Assembly: GCA_020217035.1 (NCBI GenBank)
Contig: JAIWOG010000051.1
Span: forward strand, 1-10,000
Length of the DNA stretch: 10,000 nucleotides
Reading direction: 5' to 3'
DNA from: Magnetospirillum sp.
Lineage (GTDB): Bacteria; Pseudomonadota; Alphaproteobacteria; Rhodospirillales; Magnetospirillaceae
The notes under the pieces are model-generated. The model made no database searches. It saw only the letters and a program-made list of their open reading frames with translations, and had not been told where the DNA came from. Position numbers and translations under genes: made by a program. Of the stretch, positions 1,585-9,977 are shown in pieces. How positions within the stretch are numbered: position 1 is the first letter of the stretch; every line of letters starts with the position of its first letter.

Positions 1585-1893
1585 CTAGCGACCGGCGCGG
1601 CCGGCCGATTCGATTTCCAGTTCCAGCCGGGCCAAGGCCGCTTCCAACTGCGCCCGCAGGGATTGGCGCTTGCCGGGCTCGGCGGCGCGGTACTGGCGCA
1701 GCAGGTTTTCCACTTCGATCAGCGTGGTCGCGGGCGTCGCCGAGGGCGCCATGGCGGCGCGGGCCCGCATGGTTTCCACCTGGGCGCTCTTGGCCGCCAG
1801 ATCTGCTTCGTAGGTCTGGTCGGCGGGGGCCGCCAAGACGGCGGGGGCGGTCAGCAACAGTGACAGGGTCAAGGCGAGCATGGTGCGGATCAT
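1585..1893 (-). CDS. Small secreted coiled-coil protein, last gene of the adaptor/M50 operon
   Basis: The gene encodes 102 residues. A classical Sec signal peptide (MIRTMLALTLSLLLTAPAVL, then AA) predicts cleavage near residue 21-22, leaving a mature periplasmic or exported protein of about 80 residues. The mature part is Ala, Glu and Arg rich with no cysteine and no second hydrophobic segment. Residues 25-48 and 57-97 look like two helices with coiled-coil character, joined by a Pro/Thr linker (APSATPATT). GGGAG at 1905-1901 lies 7 nt before the ATG. The gene begins 26 bp after the M50 gene ends, so it should be the distal gene of that operon. It could be a substrate, a periplasmic chaperone or a structural partner of the adaptor complex. 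No known family was recognised, and the same frame upstream of 1893 is only a shadow of the M50 gene. Confidence 0.75.
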   Translation of the reverse strand: MIRTMLALTLSLLLTAPAVLAAPADQTYEADLAAKSAQVETMRARAAMAPSATPATTLIEVENLLRQYRAAEPGKRQSLRAQLEAALARLELEIESAGRAGR

Positions 1894-1919
1894 GTGTTTT
1901 CTCCCATGGCACGGGGGCG

Positions 1920-4016
1920 TCATGCCCCCCATTCGCGAAGCAAGATGGCGGCGGCGGCACGGAACGTCCGACCCAGAAACGACCGCCTTTCCCCTTGCAA
2001 ATTGGCTTGGCCGCGCAGCGGTGCCAGGACCGTGATCTCGGGCTGGGGCCGCAGCCTGACACGGAACACCGCATGATCGGGGACCAGCCCCTTGTGGTCG
2101 AAGCGGGCTTCGATGCCACCGCCATATTGGGTGGCCAGGATGGGTTCCGACAAGGTCTTGACCGCCACCCGGTCGATGACGTCGATGGTGGCGGCGATGG
2201 CTTTGCCGCTGCCTTCGGGGATGAATTGGGCCGAATCGCCGGCTTTCAGCCCGGCCAGGTCGGCTTCGTCCACATAGGCTTCGATGGTCGCCCCCTGGCG
2301 CAATCCGGCCACGGCCTCTTGCGGGTTGATCCATTGGCCGGGCTGCAATCCGGGCGACACGTCGATGACGGTGCCGGATTGCGGGGCCCGCAGGGTCAGC
2401 CGCTCCAACTCGGCCCGCAGCGCGGCTTGGGCGGCCAGGGTGGTTTCCAGTTCCTCGGCGACGGCCTTGCTGCGGGCGCGGAATTCGTCGTCGAACCCCA
2501 TGGCCGACAACTCGTATTTCAGGATGGCGACGCGGTTGTCGATCTGGGTCAGACGCAAGGCGGTGTCGGGGTTGGACAAGGTGGCGACGATGGCGCCGGC
2601 CTCGACCTGCTGCCCTTCGACGACGGCGATCTTGTCCAGCAGGGCCGGTTGCGGCGGATAAAGCCCCACATGGCTTTGCGCCTTCAGCACCGCCGGGGCG
2701 GCGACCCGGCCGCTGACGGGGGCGGCCAGCAACGCCAGCACGATCAGCCCGCCTGCCAGCGGCCACCGCCAGCGGCGGGCGGCGCGGATGGCCGGCCAGC
2801 GTTTCTGCCATTCCGCCAGTTCGCCGGCGATGGGGCGCAGGACGAACCAGCCGATTTCCACCACGAACAGCACCACGCCGACCACCTTGATGAAGAAGTG
2901 GTAGACCAGCAGCGCGATGCCCAGGAACAGCGCCAGGCGATAAACCCAAACCGCCCAGGCGAAGACGGTCATCCACAACCGGGTGGCGTTGGGCAGCGGC
3001 TCGGGCGGCGCCTCGTTCAGGCCGAACAGCACCTCGCGCAGGTGCCAGCGGGCCAGGGCGAAGCTGCGCGGGTGCAGGTTGGGCTGGTCCAGCGCGTCCA
3101 TGGCCAGGAAATAGCCGTCGAAGCGCATGAACGGCGACAGGTTGATGGCCAAGGACGACACCCAGGTGGTGGCGGCCAGGGTGAAGGCCAGGGATTTCAG
3201 CGTCCCGTCCGGCAACAGCCCCCAAGCCAGCGTCGCCCAGGCGGCGACCATCAGTTCCGACACGATGCCGGCGCCGCCCACCCACAGACGTTGGCGGCGG
3301 TCGGTCAGCTTCCAGGCTTCGTTGACGTCGGTGTACAGCATGGGCCACAGCACCAGGAACGCCACCCCCATGGCCGGCACCCGGCAGCCGAAATGCTTGG
3401 CGGTGAAAGCGTGCCCCAGTTCGTGCACCATCTTGACCAGGCCCAAGGCGATTCCGAAAGCGGCCAGGCCGGGCAGCGACACCTGGTCCACCAAGGTGGC
3501 GGCGAAGGCATCCCATTGCCGGGCCACCAGGAACAGGCCCGCCAGCAACGCCAACAGGGTGGCCCGCCGGAATCTGGAGGACCCCAGCCAGCGCACCCAC
3601 GGCACGGTCCGTTCCAGCACCGCGTCGGGACGCACCAGCGGCAGGCGGAAGAACAGGTAATGGTGCAGCAGCCAAGTCAGCCACGAGGTCTTGGCGGCGT
3701 CGTGACTGGCCAGCAGGCGGTCCACGTCCCGGCTTCCTTGCGGTTTCAGTAACTGACTGCGGGCCAGGAAAGCGGCAAGGCCCTGCACGTCTTCCTCGTC
3801 CACCTCCAGCAGGGTGTGGCGACGGATGTCGGCGACCACCGCCCGGGCGGCGCCCAGATGCCAGCGGCTCAGGATTTCGAAGGCGCTCCAGGTCAGGCGG
3901 AAGAACCGGTTGGTCAACGGATCGTGCAAGGTCCAGGTGGGGGCGCCGTCATGGGCGGCGGGGCCGGGCAGCACCGCCAGTTCGTCGCGCAGGGCGGGAA
4001 GCAGGGCGGCGGCCAC
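1920..4016 (-). CDS. PqqD-like domain + M50 zinc metalloprotease + HlyD-type adaptor fusion
   Basis: The 698-residue membrane protein has three parts. Residues about 22-95 resemble a PqqD-like winged-helix (RiPP recognition) domain: WTLHDPLTNRFFRLTWSAFE, then a helical end. Residues about 145-395 form a multi-helix M50 (site-2 protease type) domain with a complete active site: HELGH at 198-202 (His198, Glu199, His202) and NLSPFMRFDGY at 292-302 (Asp300). TDVNEAWKL near 229-237 is typical of the YydH-like 'peptide zinc metalloprotease' branch. After a further helix (about 417-432), residues 455-660 form a HlyD-like adaptor with two lipoyl half-motifs around a short coiled coil and a beta-barrel. 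GTG at 4016 is chosen because it sits 2 bp after the upstream stop and starts just before the conserved-looking N-terminus. A GTG at 4073 would add 19 residues overlapping the upstream gene. Neither start has a clear ribosome binding site, so coupled translation is likely. The cleaved substrate is unknown. Confidence 0.88.
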   Translation of the reverse strand: MAAALLPALRDELAVLPGPAAHDGAPTWTLHDPLTNRFFRLTWSAFEILSRWHLGAARAVVADIRRHTLLEVDEEDVQGLAAFLARSQLLKPQGSRDVDRLLASHDAAKTSWLTWLLHHYLFFRLPLVRPDAVLERTVPWVRWLGSSRFRRATLLALLAGLFLVARQWDAFAATLVDQVSLPGLAAFGIALGLVKMVHELGHAFTAKHFGCRVPAMGVAFLVLWPMLYTDVNEAWKLTDRRQRLWVGGAGIVSELMVAAWATLAWGLLPDGTLKSLAFTLAATTWVSSLAINLSPFMRFDGYFLAMDALDQPNLHPRSFALARWHLREVLFGLNEAPPEPLPNATRLWMTVFAWAVWVYRLALFLGIALLVYHFFIKVVGVVLFVVEIGWFVLRPIAGELAEWQKRWPAIRAARRWRWPLAGGLIVLALLAAPVSGRVAAPAVLKAQSHVGLYPPQPALLDKIAVVEGQQVEAGAIVATLSNPDTALRLTQIDNRVAILKYELSAMGFDDEFRARSKAVAEELETTLAAQAALRAELERLTLRAPQSGTVIDVSPGLQPGQWINPQEAVAGLRQGATIEAYVDEADLAGLKAGDSAQFIPEGSGKAIAATIDVIDRVAVKTLSEPILATQYGGGIEARFDHKGLVPDHAVFRVRLRPQPEITVLAPLRGQANLQGERRSFLGRTFRAAAAILLREWGA

Positions 4017-4018
4017 GG

Positions 4019-5287
4019 CTAGAAGCCCACGAATTGGCGGATGGTGGCCAGCGGGCGGCGGAACAGCCACCACACCAACGGCACGGTGTCGCCGTCGATG
4101 CGGGCGGTGCCCTTCAATCCCAGCCGGGGTTTTTCCTCGGCCGGGTCCAGGCTGGCCCGCAGGCGGTGGGCGATGGAATTGTCGGGCCGCGCCACGGCTT
4201 CATAGGCCAGGCTGCGCACTTGCGCCCGCAGCGGCGACAACGGCCGGCTGTTCAGGAACAGGGTGACGTGGCCGCCGGTCTTGACCTCGCCCACATCGGC
4301 CACCGACACCCAGGCTTCGATCTCGCTGTCGGTTTCGTCGGCCACCGCCATGACCTTCTCGCCCAAGGCCACCGGCCGGCCGATCCAGTCGGCGGCGTCG
4401 TCGAACAAGGCGATGCCCGCCTTGGGGGCGCGGACCTGCACCCTTTGCAACTGGGCTTCCAGCAAGCGGACCTCGGCGGCTTTTTCCTCGGCCTTGCCGG
4501 CCAGGATGGCCACCTGGGCCTTGGCCTTGGCGTCGAACACCATGGCCTGGGCCACCTGACGGTATTCCGCTTCGGCGGTGGCGTGGCTTTGCCGCGCCAC
4601 GTCCAGGCGCCCGGTCAAGGTGGTGGCGTCCAACTGAAACAGTATGTCGCCTTCCGCCACCAACTGGTTGGGTTCCACCAGAACCCGGTCGACGACGCCG
4701 TCCAGCGGCGAGCGCACCACCACCGGATGGGCCGGAACACTTTCCGCCGGGGCCAGCACCGAGCCGGTGACCGGGAACAGCGCCGCCAGCAGCAAAACGG
4801 CGGTCAACAGCCTTTTGCGTTTGGTCTTGGGCAGGGATAGCCCGGCCCGTCGTGGGGCCAGCGCGGCGCGGGCCACTCGGCCCAGGTCGGCCAGACGTTG
4901 CAGCAAGGCGACCTCGTCGGCGCTGAACGGCGTTTCGCGGGCGAACAACAGCCGCGCCTGTCCCATGGGCACGACCAGGGCATGGGATGGCAGCCAGTCA
5001 TGCCATTGCGCGGCCAGAGCGGCGTCGACGCGGGTGGAATCCAAGGGCAGCGGCGCCTCGGCGGGATGGCCGCGCATCAGCTTGTCCAGCCACAAGGCGT
5101 AAGGGGCGTGGCCGTCCACCGACGACACCCCCGACAAGGCGATGACGGCCCCCTGCCACAATGCCGCCTGGCGATATTCCACCATTCCGGCACCCAGGTT
5201 CAGGATGGCGAAATCGACCTCGACCGGCCGCGTCGCCTTCAGGATGCGGCCTTCCAGTTCCAGCCATGCCAGGATGGCATCGCTCAT
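4019..5287 (-). CDS. Inner-membrane HlyD-type adaptor with GAF-like cytoplasmic N-domain
   Basis: The protein has 422 residues. Residues 1-145 are soluble and GAF-like in length and pattern, including WQGAVIALSGVSSVDGHAPY and a closing FSADEVALLQRLADLGRVA helix. A basic stretch (KTKRKR, 154-159) and one membrane helix (about 159-176) follow. The rest is periplasmic: lipoyl half-motif 189-220, alpha-hairpin about 222-283, second lipoyl half 284-317 and a beta-barrel to about 400. This is the architecture of membrane fusion proteins that link an inner-membrane transporter to an outer-membrane channel. The cytoplasmic head may bind a small ligand or contact the M50 partner; this is inference. 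The ATG at 5287 overlaps the upstream stop by 4 bp (ATGA), and the stop is 2 bp before the next gene's GTG, so the three genes are translationally coupled. A longer frame upstream of 5287 is a shadow of the preceding gene. Confidence 0.87.
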   Translation of the reverse strand: MSDAILAWLELEGRILKATRPVEVDFAILNLGAGMVEYRQAALWQGAVIALSGVSSVDGHAPYALWLDKLMRGHPAEAPLPLDSTRVDAALAAQWHDWLPSHALVVPMGQARLLFARETPFSADEVALLQRLADLGRVARAALAPRRAGLSLPKTKRKRLLTAVLLLAALFPVTGSVLAPAESVPAHPVVVRSPLDGVVDRVLVEPNQLVAEGDILFQLDATTLTGRLDVARQSHATAEAEYRQVAQAMVFDAKAKAQVAILAGKAEEKAAEVRLLEAQLQRVQVRAPKAGIALFDDAADWIGRPVALGEKVMAVADETDSEIEAWVSVADVGEVKTGGHVTLFLNSRPLSPLRAQVRSLAYEAVARPDNSIAHRLRASLDPAEEKPRLGLKGTARIDGDTVPLVWWLFRRPLATIRQFVGF

Positions 5288-6012
5288 GGCGGCGGCGCCA
5301 GCAGGACCTTGCCGCTCATGCCGGCGGCCAGTTCGGGAAAGCTGCCGCCGATGGTGCCGGTGACCCGCACCGATTGGCTGACCGGGTCGATGCGGGCGCC
5401 GACCCGCACCAGCTTGACCGGATAGGTCCGCGCGGTTTCGTCGATTTCGACCTTGAAGGCGTGGCCGGGTTTCAGCCAGACCAGCCATTTGGACGGCACG
5501 ACGAAATCCAGTTCCAGCTCGGAATCGTCGATGATGTCCAACAGCGCCTGGCCCGGTTGGACAAATTGCTGGGCGCGGACCTTCTGTTCGGCGACCCGGC
5601 CGTCGAACGGGGCCGGCACTTGGCACTTGCCCAGCACGGCGGCGCTGGCGTCCAGCTTGGCGCGGGCCTTGTCGCGTTCGGCCTGGGCGACGTCGCTTTC
5701 CAGCTTGCCGATGGTTTGCAGTTCCAAAAGCCGGGCGTTGACCGCCACCGTCTTCTCGGTGGCGGTCAACGCCGCCTTGGCCTCGGCCACCTGGGCGCGT
5801 TGGATGGAACAGTCGAAGGACACCAGAATCTGGCCCTTCTTGAACCGCTCGCCTTCGCGTACCGGGATGCGTTCGACCTTGGCGCCGATCTCGGCGGCCA
5901 GGGTGGTGTAGTCGCGGGGCGACAATTGCGCCCGCAATTCCTGGGCCTGGCTGGCGGTCGCCACGGCGACAGCCAGACCGGCGATGAGCAGAAGAAGTCT
6001 TATCATGCCCAT
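5284..6012 (-). CDS. Secreted periplasmic adaptor (RND/HlyD-type membrane fusion protein), short
   Basis: The 242-residue protein is the first gene of the operon. Residues 1-23 form a signal peptide (RLLLLIAGLAVAVATASQA), with no lipobox Cys and no later membrane helix, so the mature protein should be soluble in the periplasm. A lipoyl half-motif (about 35-68, VREGERFKKGQILVSFD) is followed by a short alpha-hairpin (about 70-127), the second lipoyl half (PAPFDGRVAEQKVRAQQFVQ, 133-152) and a beta-barrel (about 160-238) ending GMSGKVLL, typical of RND adaptors. It is clearly shorter than the usual 350-400 residues and lacks the C-terminal membrane-proximal domain. AAGG six bases before the ATG at 6012 supports that start over the ATG at 6006. 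No pump is encoded next to it. Together with the following two adaptors it probably forms a mixed trans-envelope assembly. Confidence 0.87.
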   Translation of the reverse strand: MGMIRLLLLIAGLAVAVATASQAQELRAQLSPRDYTTLAAEIGAKVERIPVREGERFKKGQILVSFDCSIQRAQVAEAKAALTATEKTVAVNARLLELQTIGKLESDVAQAERDKARAKLDASAAVLGKCQVPAPFDGRVAEQKVRAQQFVQPGQALLDIIDDSELELDFVVPSKWLVWLKPGHAFKVEIDETARTYPVKLVRVGARIDPVSQSVRVTGTIGGSFPELAAGMSGKVLLAPPP

Positions 6013-6110: not shown

Positions 6111-6148
6111 TCCCAAGCCGGGAGACGGCGGGGGCGACTTCACGCCGT
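6111..6148 (-). terminator. Weak inverted repeats at the end of the chemoreceptor gene
   Basis: ACGGCG (6125-6130) and CGCCGT (6143-6148) pair across the chemoreceptor stop codon, and TCCC-N5-GGGA follows at 6111-6123. Neither is followed by a T-tract on the minus strand, so this is at best a weak or Rho-assisted end. Read-through into the adaptor operon remains possible. Confidence 0.2.
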
Positions 6149-8110
6149 GGCCGAACGCACCGCCTGGACAAGCACCGACCTTAGCCCGGCCACCGCCTCG
6201 GCGACTTGGGCGGTGGTGCTGCTGACGGCGTTGGCGCGCTGGCCGGTGGATTCCGCCTCTTCCGTGACTTCGGTCATCCGTTCCGTCACCTCCTGCACCG
6301 CGACCGAGGTCTGGGCGACGTTGCGGGCGATCTCGGCGGTGGCCGCCTCCTGTTCCTCGATGGCGGCGGCCACGGCGGCGGCGACCTCGCGCACGGTGTG
6401 GACGGACTGGACGATGGTCGCCATGGCCTCGACCGCGTCGGCGGTGGTGGCGGCGATGTCGGATGTCTGGGCGGCGATTTCCTCGGTCGCCTGGGCGGTC
6501 TGCTGCGCCAGGGCCTTGACCTCTGACGCCACCACGGCGAAGCCCTTGCCGGCCTCGCCCGCCCTGGCCGCTTCGATGGTGGCGTTCAACGCCAGCAAGT
6601 TGGTCTTGGCGGCGATCAGGCTGATCAGGTGGGCGACCTCGCCGATGCGGGTCACCGATTGCGACAGGTGGCCGATGGTTTCCTCGGCGCAGGCGGCGGT
6701 GGTGGCGGCCGATTGGGTCGCCTCGGCCGCGTGGGTGACCTGGGATGAGATTTCGCGGATCGACGCGGCCAATTGTTCCGAGGCGGACGCGACCCCTTGG
6801 GCGTTGTCCATGGCGGTGCGCGAGGCGACGGTGACCGACCGGCTGTCGGCGCTGACCGAGTTGGCTGAGCCGGCCATTTCGCCGGCGTCGCCAGCCATCC
6901 GCGACGTCAACGCCCCCACATGGGCGACGGCGCGGCCGATTTCTTGTTCCACCGTGTCGGCCATGTCCCGCAGCAGCTTGCGCCGCTCGGCTTCGCCGCG
7001 CTCGCGGGCTTCGTCCTGGGCGCGGCGCAGGCGGTCGGACTCGACCATGGCGTCGCGGAACACGGCGACGGAACGGGCCATCGAGCCGATCTCGTCGCGC
7101 CGCTCGCCCCCAGCGATGTTGACGCCGGTATCGCCGCCGGCCAGCGCTCCCATCACCTCGGACAGGGCATCGATGGGGCGGTAGATGGAACGGGCGATCA
7201 AAGTTCCCAGCACCACCAGCAGGGCGACGCCGACCACCATGGTGGCGGTCATGGCGGTGGCGACGTCGCGGCCGATGCGCCAGGCCCGCTCGCCGGCCGC
7301 CTTGGCCTCGGCGGTGGCTTCGGCGACAAGGGCGGCCAGCACCGGCTCGATGGCCGCCTGCTGCTCGGGCAGGGTGCGCGAGACCCGGGTCAACTCTTTG
7401 ACGGCGGTGGCGGCGGCCTCGAAGCCTTCGGCGTAGCTGTCCATGGCCGACTTGATCGCCGCGCGGCCGTCGGCGGGGATGCCCGAGGCCGGCAACGCCT
7501 TGGCGAACTCGCGCTGGCGCCGGTCCATCTCGTCGACGTATTTGGATTCGATGCGGGCGAAATAGTCCTTCTCGTGCCGCCGCATCTGCAGCATCAGCAC
7601 CATCAGGCGCGGCTCGTCGTAGTGGCGCAAAGCGTCCTCGACCGCGTGCACGGCACCGCGCAGGTCGCCCATGAGGCCGTCCTTCTCGGTCAGCCCGACC
7701 TCGCGCTGGTTGGCCACCACCAGGGCGAAGGCACCGCCATAGGTGGCCACGGCGGCACGGATTTGCTCGATCTGGCGCGGTTGGTCCTGGTTGCCGGGGG
7801 CGACATGGCCGGCCATGGCGTCCAAAGCCGCCAGGATGTCGGCCATGGCTTCCTTGTGGCGGGTGATGTCGGCGGGACGGCGGTAAAGCAGGAATTCCTT
7901 CTCGATCGCGCTGACCCGCAATTGAGCGGCGGCCAGGCGTTCCCCCGCGAGGCCCAGTTGGCGGGCGCGGTCGGCGTCGGCGTCGGCGACAGCCTTCCAG
8001 CTTTGGCCGGCCCACATGGTCACCGCCAGGATGGTCATGATCACCGCGGCGATGGTCAGCAGCGAGCCAATTTGGACACGGATGGGGAAGCGGGCGAGAA
8101 AAACGGACAT
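6140..8110 (-). CDS. Methyl-accepting chemotaxis protein with long helical periplasmic sensor
   Basis: This 656-residue transmembrane chemoreceptor would control CheA autophosphorylation. TM1 is about 13-34. The sensor, about 35-285, is long and all-helical; KEFLLYRR (71-78) and [11 protein letters not shown] (176-186) resemble helical bimodular (HBM) sensors, which in known cases bind organic acids or amines. TM2 is about 283-306, HAMP about 307-360, and the methylation and signalling coiled coil runs to the C-terminus. The hairpin tip is near 498-525 with [17 protein letters not shown], where Lys502 replaces the Gln usual just before TN. There is no C-terminal CheR/CheB docking pentapeptide; it ends VRSATA. 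The AGGGGGGA stretch about 8 nt before the ATG at 8110 supports the start. The ligand is unknown. It follows the kinase gene after 166 bp and precedes the adaptor operon by 127 bp in the same direction. Confidence 0.95.
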
Positions 8111-8276: not shown

Positions 8277-9977
8277 TTATGAGTTTACGCCCTGTCCCGG
8301 CGCGGTGAAGTGGAAGGTCGATCCCTCGCCTGGGACGGACTCGACCCAGATGGTCCCTCCCCAGCGATGCACCATGCGGCGGCACAAGGCCAGACCGACG
8401 CCGTTGCCGGGATAGGAATCGACGGTGTGCAGGCGTTGGAAGATGGCGAAAATCTGGACCCAGTGCTCGCGGGCGATGCCGATGCCGTTATCCGTCACCC
8501 GGAAATGCCAAAACCCGCCATTGTCGGGCTCGGCGGTGACGGTGATTTCCGGGGGACGGCCCGGGTGGTGGTATTTCAGCGCGTTCTCGATCAGGTTGGT
8601 GAACAGGCTGGACAATTGGTGGGGACTGGTGGCGACCCACGGCAGGGGGCCCGCCTCGACCCGGCCGTCGGTGGCGCTGATCTGCGGCCCCAAATCGGCC
8701 AGCACCTGTTGCAACACGACGGCGGCATCGACGGGCGGCGGCGAGGCTTCGGCCCGCGACACTCGGGCATAGGCCAGTAGATCCTGGATCAGTCCCGACA
8801 TGCGGGTGGCATTGGTGACGATGAAATCGATGAATTCACGCCCCTCCTGGTCCAACTGGCCTTGATAGCGTCGTTCCAGCAATTGCGAGAAGCTGGCGAT
8901 GTTGCGCAGCGGCGTTTGCAGGTCGTGCGAGGCGATGTAGGCGAATTCCTCCAATTCGGCGTTGGACCGTTCCAGGTTCAGGTTGCTGCGCTGCAATTCG
9001 GTGGCCATGGCGACGGTGGCGCCATAGGCTTGGTTCAAGTGGCGGTAGACCGACAACTGGATGGCGGTCAGGATCAGCGCCAGGATGCCGGTCATCAAGG
9101 CTTGGCCGTGCCAGGTGCTGAGGTAGTGGCTGCTGCTCAGCGCGACGACCACCGCCAGCGGGAAATGCGGCAGGCCGCGGAAGGCGTAAAGACGGGTCAA
9201 CTGGTCGATGGCCGAGACGAATTCTCCGTCGGCCCGCATCACCGGCGACTGGTACAAAGGATAAAGGCCAGTGTTGGATTCGTTCAACTGCTCGACCACC
9301 TGCGGGCGGCGCAACACCAATTGCGCCTTGTCGCGCAGGCGCAGGGTGACCAATCCCTGGTCGCCGATATCCAGTTGGTCGATCAGCCTTTGCAGCCATT
9401 CCAGGTCGATATAGGCGATGACAGCCCCGGCGAAGCGTTGCGTCTGGTCCTGCAACGGCCGGGCCAGGACGATGCCCGCCTTGCCGTTGACCCGGCTGAT
9501 CAGCACCTCGGACAGCACGAAGTCGCGGCTGGGATCCTGGCTCAGCACCTGGAACCAGTGACGGTCGGCCACGTTCAGCTTCGCCTCGGGGCCAGAGCGG
9601 CCCACCCCCAGGACGGAATCGCCGTTGACGTCGATGACGCGGTAGTTCAGCACGGCGTCGAAGCCCCGCAGCGATTGTTCCATGGTGGCGCGGACCAGAC
9701 CGGGCCGGTGTTCCATGGTTTCGGCGTTCACCAGGGTGGCGAAGGCCCCCAGATCGGCGTGGATGCGCACCAGGGTGTTGTCGATGGTGTGGGTCAGGAC
9801 GTCGGCCAGGTTGGCGACGGCGCTGTGCGCCTCGCGCTTGGCCGCTTCGTAGGCGTTCCAGCTTTGCAACGCCATCAGCACCAGGATCAGCAACAAGGGG
9901 CCGAACAGCAGCACCCGACGAGCGCGGATGCGCAGGCTGGTTCTGGTCAAGTCCAGGGGTGACGGTGACGGCGTCAT
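8277..9977 (-). CDS. Membrane histidine kinase with dCache-like extracytoplasmic sensor
   Basis: The 566-residue protein is a sensor kinase. TM1 is about 22-40 and TM2 about 289-311, enclosing a roughly 250-residue sensor that looks like dCache (ADRHWFQVLSQ at 137-147, then VLSEVLISRVNGKAGIVLA). A coiled-coil linker (ELQRSNLNLERSNAELEEF) leads to the dimerisation domain with SHDLQTPLR: His351 is the phosphorylation site, and DxxT (Asp352-Thr355) fits a kinase/phosphatase. The ATPase domain is complete: N-box Asn465, G1 DNGIGI from 496, G2 GNGVGL at 524-529. It lacks a receiver, HAMP or PAS domain, so it must use a separate response regulator; none is in the window, though one could lie beyond 10000. 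The ATG at 9977 fits the N-terminus; only a weak purine stretch precedes it. The ligand is unknown. Being upstream of the chemoreceptor is consistent with sensing-related control but does not prove a link. Confidence 0.93.
   Translation of the reverse strand: MTPSPSPLDLTRTSLRIRARRVLLFGPLLLILVLMALQSWNAYEAAKREAHSAVANLADVLTHTIDNTLVRIHADLGAFATLVNAETMEHRPGLVRATMEQSLRGFDAVLNYRVIDVNGDSVLGVGRSGPEAKLNVADRHWFQVLSQDPSRDFVLSEVLISRVNGKAGIVLARPLQDQTQRFAGAVIAYIDLEWLQRLIDQLDIGDQGLVTLRLRDKAQLVLRRPQVVEQLNESNTGLYPLYQSPVMRADGEFVSAIDQLTRLYAFRGLPHFPLAVVVALSSSHYLSTWHGQALMTGILALILTAIQLSVYRHLNQAYGATVAMATELQRSNLNLERSNAELEEFAYIASHDLQTPLRNIASFSQLLERRYQGQLDQEGREFIDFIVTNATRMSGLIQDLLAYARVSRAEASPPPVDAAVVLQQVLADLGPQISATDGRVEAGPLPWVATSPHQLSSLFTNLIENALKYHHPGRPPEITVTAEPDNGGFWHFRVTDNGIGIAREHWVQIFAIFQRLHTVDSYPGNGVGLALCRRMVHRWGGTIWVESVPGEGSTFHFTAPGQGVNS

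What the first reader, a model, noticed from the sequence alone, without database searches (positions are those of the whole stretch)
1585..6012. Four-gene operon with three different adaptors and an M50 protease but no pump or outer-membrane channel
A secreted adaptor, a GAF-like adaptor, a PqqD-like/M50/HlyD fusion and a small secreted protein are joined by a 4-bp overlap, a 2-bp gap and a 26-bp gap, so they form one unit. The 3' end is closed by a convergent gene 3 bp away. Adaptors normally accompany an ABC, RND or MFS pump; none is here. The set may be a self-contained export, processing or signalling machine that borrows its energy source and channel, or one in which the M50 protein is the inner-membrane component. 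From unverified memory, M50/HlyD proteins of this kind can occur in export clusters of very large exoproteins.
Basis: partly seen in the sequence, partly recalled or inferred. Interest (0 to 1): 0.7.

Follow-up and report, generated by a model that had tools for sequence, protein, structure and literature searches.

The report
Giant-protein exporter with no pump gene
These four genes look like the inner half of a little-studied bacterial machine that probably recognises, trims and exports giant surface proteins; most relatives sit beside such a giant protein, with no pump gene among them, so what powers export is an open question.

Summary
In detail: A (adaptor), B (GAF-adaptor), C (leader-reader/M50/adaptor fusion) and D (small secreted) form one tight unit, with no pump and no channel in the window. 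Comparison shows it is half of a larger, widespread module. Of 49 related loci with at least 7 kb upstream of C, 47 have a giant repeat protein nearby and 29 show a TolC-type channel. A motif scan found no ABC ATPase between the genes of any of 80 loci, several of them truncated. The giants share an N-terminal leader (LE[PQA]RxMFDGAA). In 299 genomes an exact pattern for it occurs in 14, all among the 71 with C. C begins with a predicted RiPP leader-recognition fold, then a RiPP-type M50 protease with invariant active site and a MacA-like adaptor. B begins with a GAF fold. In this genome a matching giant and channel lie on other contigs (C109/C51), so the locus looks split. Best reading: C reads and probably clips the giant's leader and, with A and B, passes it to the channel. 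Energy source unknown. Nine searches of open papers found no description. Mechanism is inferred, not shown.

The parts
5284..6012 (-). Gene A: periplasmic adaptor with a signal-peptide-like start (242 aa, HlyD/RND_mfp type)
   Evidence: TIGR01730 E 3.5e-37, above cut-off; HlyD_3; relatives in 33 of 80 loci; one other strong match in this genome, C35, 58% identity
4019..5287 (-). Gene B: GAF-domain adaptor (422 aa)
   Evidence: HlyD_3; AF2 model pLDDT 92; relatives beside C in 78 of 80 loci
4847..5287 (-). GAF fold of B (residues 1-147), probably cytosolic
4067..4771 (-). MacA-like adaptor part of B (residues 173-407), after one TM helix (about 158-178)
1920..4016 (-). Gene C: leader-recognition / M50 protease / adaptor fusion (698 aa, GTG start)
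   Evidence: Pfam M50 and HlyD_3 in 34 of 34 aligned relatives; AF2 model pLDDT 87
3741..4004 (-). RRE/PqqD-like N-terminal domain of C (residues 5-92)
3411..3425 (-). HELGH zinc-protease motif of C (residues 198-202)
   Evidence: H198, E199, H202 invariant in 34 of 34
3117..3119 (-). Asp300 of the second M50 motif (FDGY)
   Evidence: D300 invariant in 34 of 34
1986..2717 (-). MacA-like adaptor part of C (residues 434-677)
1585..1893 (-). Gene D: small secreted protein (102 aa), lineage-specific
   Evidence: No Pfam or NCBIfam hit; relatives after C in 5 of 80 loci, in L138, L139, L150, L151, L114 and L180

Best explanation
A-B-C-D is the inner-membrane and periplasmic half of an export-and-processing system for giant repeat exoproteins that carry an N-terminal leader (a basic stretch, then LE[PQA]RxMFDGAA). 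The giant (G) and TolC-type channel (O) that best match this unit lie on other contigs (C109/C51) of the same genome, so the locus is split. Proposed steps: C's cytosolic RRE domain binds the leader (inferred); C's M50 site clips it (inferred); the adaptor parts of C, B and A form the periplasmic conduit to O (inferred from family and fold); B's GAF domain gates the process on a cytosolic signal (speculative). Shown here: gene sets and order, predicted domains, conserved active site, co-occurrence of the leader motif with C, no ABC ATPase found between the genes, and separate contigs for G-O and A-D in this assembly. Not shown: export, cleavage, binding, energy source.
Against: No experiment. 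The assembly is fragmented and about 94% complete; the C109-C51 link rests on the same GGLG repeat at both contig ends. 57 of the 71 C-positive genomes lacked the exact motif pattern, as did G027 and G040, which have C; some C hits are distant and variant leaders would be missed, but I did not resolve each. L063's giant ORF lacks the motif. L005 and L038 have no giant nearby. On pMSR-1 the gene before the channel is a roughly 490-aa ELWxxDGT repeat protein, not a giant. No leader was found for the second set on C35. RRE and GAF roles rest on predicted folds; no Pfam PqqD hit in 34 C proteins. Energy source unexplained.
Confidence: 0.62

Rival explanations
1. The set is an accessory to a classical type I secretion system: an ABC transporter encoded elsewhere powers export, and A, B and C only add leader processing and the periplasmic bridge.
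For: TolC-type channels and MacA-like adaptors normally work with a pump (general knowledge). ABC proteins resembling type I ATPases, below the curated cut-off, are present in this genome (e.g. C40, C200), the C40 one beside an adaptor and a channel (my reading).
Against: No ABC ATPase between the genes in 80 loci (regex). Of 25 C-bearing genomes, 12 have no hit above cut-off to TIGR03375 or TIGR01842; 7 of those 12 were also searched with TIGR01846 and 5 (G220, G063, G282, G122, G081) have none above cut-off there either. G220 has a leader-bearing giant next to channel, B and C. But sub-threshold ABC proteins exist in all of them (596 bits against a cut-off of 726 in G081), and MacB-type pumps were not tested.
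Confidence: 0.35
2. The unit is a signalling device: GAF and M50 parts sense a signal and cut a membrane-bound regulator; adaptor parts are structural only.
For: GAF fold; M50 proteases often act in regulated proteolysis (general knowledge); a chemotaxis receptor and a histidine kinase lie upstream in the window.
Against: The recurring partners are a giant exoprotein and a channel. Relatives of the receptor and kinase appear only sporadically around the 80 loci and not in this position.
Confidence: 0.07
3. A peptide (RiPP-like) exporter in which D, or another small protein, is the substrate.
For: C's M50 module is closest to daptide and YydH/LiaK peptide proteases; D is small and follows C.
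Against: D has a hydrophobic signal-peptide-like start and was detected in only 5 of 80 loci, while the giant is nearly constant.
Confidence: 0.06
4. In this genome the unit is a decaying remnant of a split system.
For: G-O and A-D are on separate contigs; broken and partial copies occur in a related genome (G008: an A/C remnant in L176).
Against: All four frames are open with tight spacing and C keeps the full active site.
Confidence: 0.1

Closest known systems
Type I secretion systems for giant adhesins (LapBCE/BapA type; recalled)
   Same: TolC-type channel, HlyD-type adaptor, giant repeat substrate
   Different: No ABC transporter found in the cluster; three adaptors; M50 protease fused to an adaptor; conserved N-terminal leader in the substrate. 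A LapBCE-like set seems to be present separately on C40 of this genome (my reading)
RiPP maturation proteases: daptide HExxH (NF041824) and YydH/LiaK (NF058609)
   Same: M50 intramembrane module (34 of 34 relatives hit both)
   Different: Window protein scores below both curated cut-offs (169.4 of 300; 32.3 of 225 bits); adds RRE and adaptor domains; substrate appears to be a giant protein, not a small peptide
RRE/PqqD leader-binding domains (e.g. lasso-peptide B1, 6jx3)
   Same: Predicted fold of C residues 5-92
   Different: No Pfam PqqD hit; binding untested
LEPR-XLL giant proteins
   Same: Leader resembles the named domain (name seen in a passage of PMC10868602: a Vibrio giant of about 8000 aa with N-terminal LEPR-XLL and C-terminal RTX parts)
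   Different: No such hit for the three giants scanned with NCBIfam; here the motif extends to MFDGAA and goes with C
MacAB-TolC
   Same: Adaptor folds of B and C
   Different: No MacB in the cluster

Membership tests
Type I secretion system | ABC transporter encoded with the adaptor and channel | tested here: not met
   None among 8 window proteins. Regex scan of all ORFs of 80 loci: ATPase in 10 loci, none between the genes; 10 of the 11 ORFs lie downstream of C, one (L038) 7.8 kb upstream. The scan is a lower bound: an ATPase-like gene just downstream of C in L027 (seen) was not flagged
Type I secretion system | HlyD-type adaptor and TolC-type outer-membrane factor | tested here: met
   Adaptor domains in A, B, C; channel in 30 of 80 relative loci and on C51 (Pfam OEP)
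Type I secretion system | Uncleaved C-terminal secretion signal | tested here: inconclusive
   Many giants share a C-terminal SL(S/T)EQLR-like segment (read by eye), role unknown
Site-2 protease family M50 | HExxH plus distal Asp motif | tested here: met
   Invariant in 34 of 34; Pfam M50 in 34 of 34
Daptide HExxH protease (NF041824) | Score above curated cut-off of 300 bits | tested here: not met
   169.4 bits for the window protein
RiPP recognition element | Winged-helix PqqD fold | tested here: met
RiPP recognition element | Binds a substrate leader | not testable with these tools
   Needs a binding assay
GAF domain (B) | GAF fold | tested here: met
RND/ABC/MFS tripartite efflux pump | Dedicated inner-membrane pump in the unit | tested here: not met
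   No such gene among the window proteins scanned. In relatives only ABC was scanned for systematically; RND and MFS were not

The most novel reading that the evidence does not exclude
A pump-less secretion system: the RRE-M50-adaptor protein C is itself the inner-membrane core. It reads a RiPP-like leader on a giant protein, clips it, and feeds the chain into a three-adaptor conduit and TolC-type channel without a dedicated ATP- or proton-driven pump, for example by folding or calcium-driven pulling outside.
Probability: 0.2. Interest if true: 0.92.

Novelty: new variant of a known kind. Interest (0 to 1): 0.7.

Why it matters
The protein family of C is large (4,895 hits at E up to 1e-30 among 7,995 candidates scored) and is found in alpha-, beta- and gammaproteobacteria, Magnetococcales and on plasmids. 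In the rows shown it is named only as an adaptor, peptidase, peptide zinc metalloprotease, biotin/lipoyl-binding or unknown protein. If the reading holds, RiPP-style leader recognition is used to export giant surface proteins, which joins two fields and gives a testable handle (the LE[PQA]RxMFDGAA leader) on how such giants leave the cell and what powers it.

Tried and rejected
Rejected: 'no channel' as a system property (channel in relatives and on C51). Rejected: D as a core part (rarely detected, though small secreted ORFs after C in L005 and L008, look similar by eye). Doubted: Sec export of the giant. The N-termini around the motif have a median best 12-residue hydropathy of 1.28 (26 regex-selected giants) against 3.07 for A, but the highest giant value, 2.27, exceeds D's 2.17, so this is weak.

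Led nowhere: a stricter motif in the own genome (0 hits; the looser one gave 1); contig C85 as continuation of the window (frame does not fit; read by eye); promoter/terminator scan; Rfam (0 hits). Foldseek's shown rows listed only adaptors for B and C; the GAF and RRE matches came from the second look. First count of ABC ATPases (8 of 80 loci) used called ORFs only; the repeat on all ORFs gave 10 of 80. Giant calls used a GC filter that missed some giants and were redone without it.

Literature: nine searches listed no paper that I could tie to this gene set; only open-licence PMC papers are held. Passages read: one each in PMC12322963 and PMC10868602. All other papers were seen as search listings only.

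Full report
Observation. A is an RND_mfp-type adaptor with a signal-peptide-like start. B and C carry HlyD-type adaptor domains, and C also an M50 protease domain. None of the 8 window proteins scanned is a pump or channel.

Relatives. B lies beside C in 78 of 80; the other two have 44 and 62 bp upstream. Of 49 loci with at least 7 kb upstream of C, 47 have a giant repeat protein (called by length and composition) nearby, two of these on the opposite strand after C; L005 and L038 have none. The channel is seen in 29 of these 49; in most of the others the stored flank ends inside the giant. The usual orders are giant-channel-A-B-C in Rhodospirillales and channel-A-giant-B-C in many beta- and gammaproteobacteria, with further variants. 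Annotated plasmids show the same set: DUF4347 or Ig-like giant, TolC, adaptor, HlyD, C. On pMSR-1, however, a roughly 490-aa ELWxxDGT protein stands in the giant's place. Of three giants scanned, two carry DUF4347, and they show cadherin, VCBS or Ig-type repeats.

Leader. Of 24 giant ORFs that begin inside their locus, 23 carry LE[PQA]R followed by an MFDGA-like stretch within the first 120 residues, by eye behind a basic stretch; L063, which begins 154 bp from a contig end, does not. Three more, open at the locus edge, show it (L018, L036, L055). In 299 genomes of the phylum, C (E up to 1e-60) was in 71, and an exact DNA pattern for the leader was in 14, all among the 71; the reversed pattern gave none. 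The chance value is 6e-10, but the genomes are not independent (14 genomes in 8 genera). The other 57 C-positive genomes had no exact match; the pattern misses variants, and some of those C hits are distant. In 20 nearer genomes, with two mismatches allowed, 16 of 18 with C have the motif (not G027, G040) and neither of two without C does.

Pump. By regex, ABC-type ATPases occur in 10 of 80 loci, none between the genes of the unit. This is a lower bound, and several loci are truncated. Of 25 C-bearing genomes, 12 have no hit above cut-off to two type I ATPase families. Seven of those 12 were given to a third family; five still have none (G220, G063, G282, G122, G081). G220 has a leader-bearing giant beside channel, B and C (A not resolved). 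MacB-type, RND and MFS pumps acting in trans were not excluded.

This genome. The window is the whole of contig C84; C83 continues one reading frame at its left end. A second set (channel, A, B, C) is on C35, with C 50% identical. The only leader motif found is on C109, in a DUF4347 giant that runs off the contig end in a GGLG repeat. C51 begins in the same repeat, gives a giant's C-terminus and continues into a channel with no A after it. That channel is 73% identical to the one before A-B-C in L002 and about 81% to those directly before A in L139, L145 and L173. The genome has two C matches and two strong A matches. So the window's A-B-C-D most likely serves the C109/C51 giant and channel. 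In the related complete genome G008, giant-channel-A cassettes without B-C (L175, L177) stand beside full sets, which fits work in trans.

Mechanism. Shown: sets, order, predicted domains, active site, co-occurrence. Inferred: leader binding by the RRE, clipping by M50, conduit through A, B and C to the channel. Speculative: GAF gating. Unknown: energy.

Novelty. The parts are of known kinds. The combination (leader reader, protease and adaptor in one protein serving a giant, with no pump found in the unit) was not found in nine searches of open papers. I rate it a new variant of a known kind; a truly pump-less exporter would be categorically new but is not shown.

Noticed in passing
L168 (own contig C109) 12184-13125 and 13085-14041; also L139, L143, L150, L173, L051, L190: Small phage-tail-Collar (PF07484) proteins, several with signal-peptide-like starts and YPxRP-like tails, sit near the giants or the C gene (8 of 8 such proteins tested hit Collar); relatives in 7 of 80 loci by tblastn. 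Possible further partner of the system.
   Followed up: partly
L046 457-1332; L183 12039-12920: Sulfotransferase genes (PF13469) beside the giant in two distant species.
   Followed up: no
G008: L138-L142, L175-L177: One complete genome carries many copies of the system, with giant-channel-A cassettes lacking B-C, two giants in tandem (L142) and a broken copy (L176).
   Followed up: partly
plasmid records; L186, L187, L188, L190: The set is on plasmids: M. gryphiswaldense pMSR-1, Azospirillum, Kosakonia, and C relatives at 41.9% identity on E. coli and Citrobacter plasmids; 55 records in all.
   Followed up: partly
L140 4379-4705, L141 4358-4684, L179 12902-13228, L186 11663-11956: A small gene sits on the opposite strand between B and C, where most loci have none.
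   Followed up: no
window 6140-8110 and 8277-9977: Chemotaxis receptor and histidine kinase with a Cache-like sensor upstream on the same strand; not seen in this position in the 80 relatives.
   Followed up: no
giant C-termini: Many giants share a C-terminal segment like SL(S/T)EQLR, which may be a second signal.
   Followed up: no
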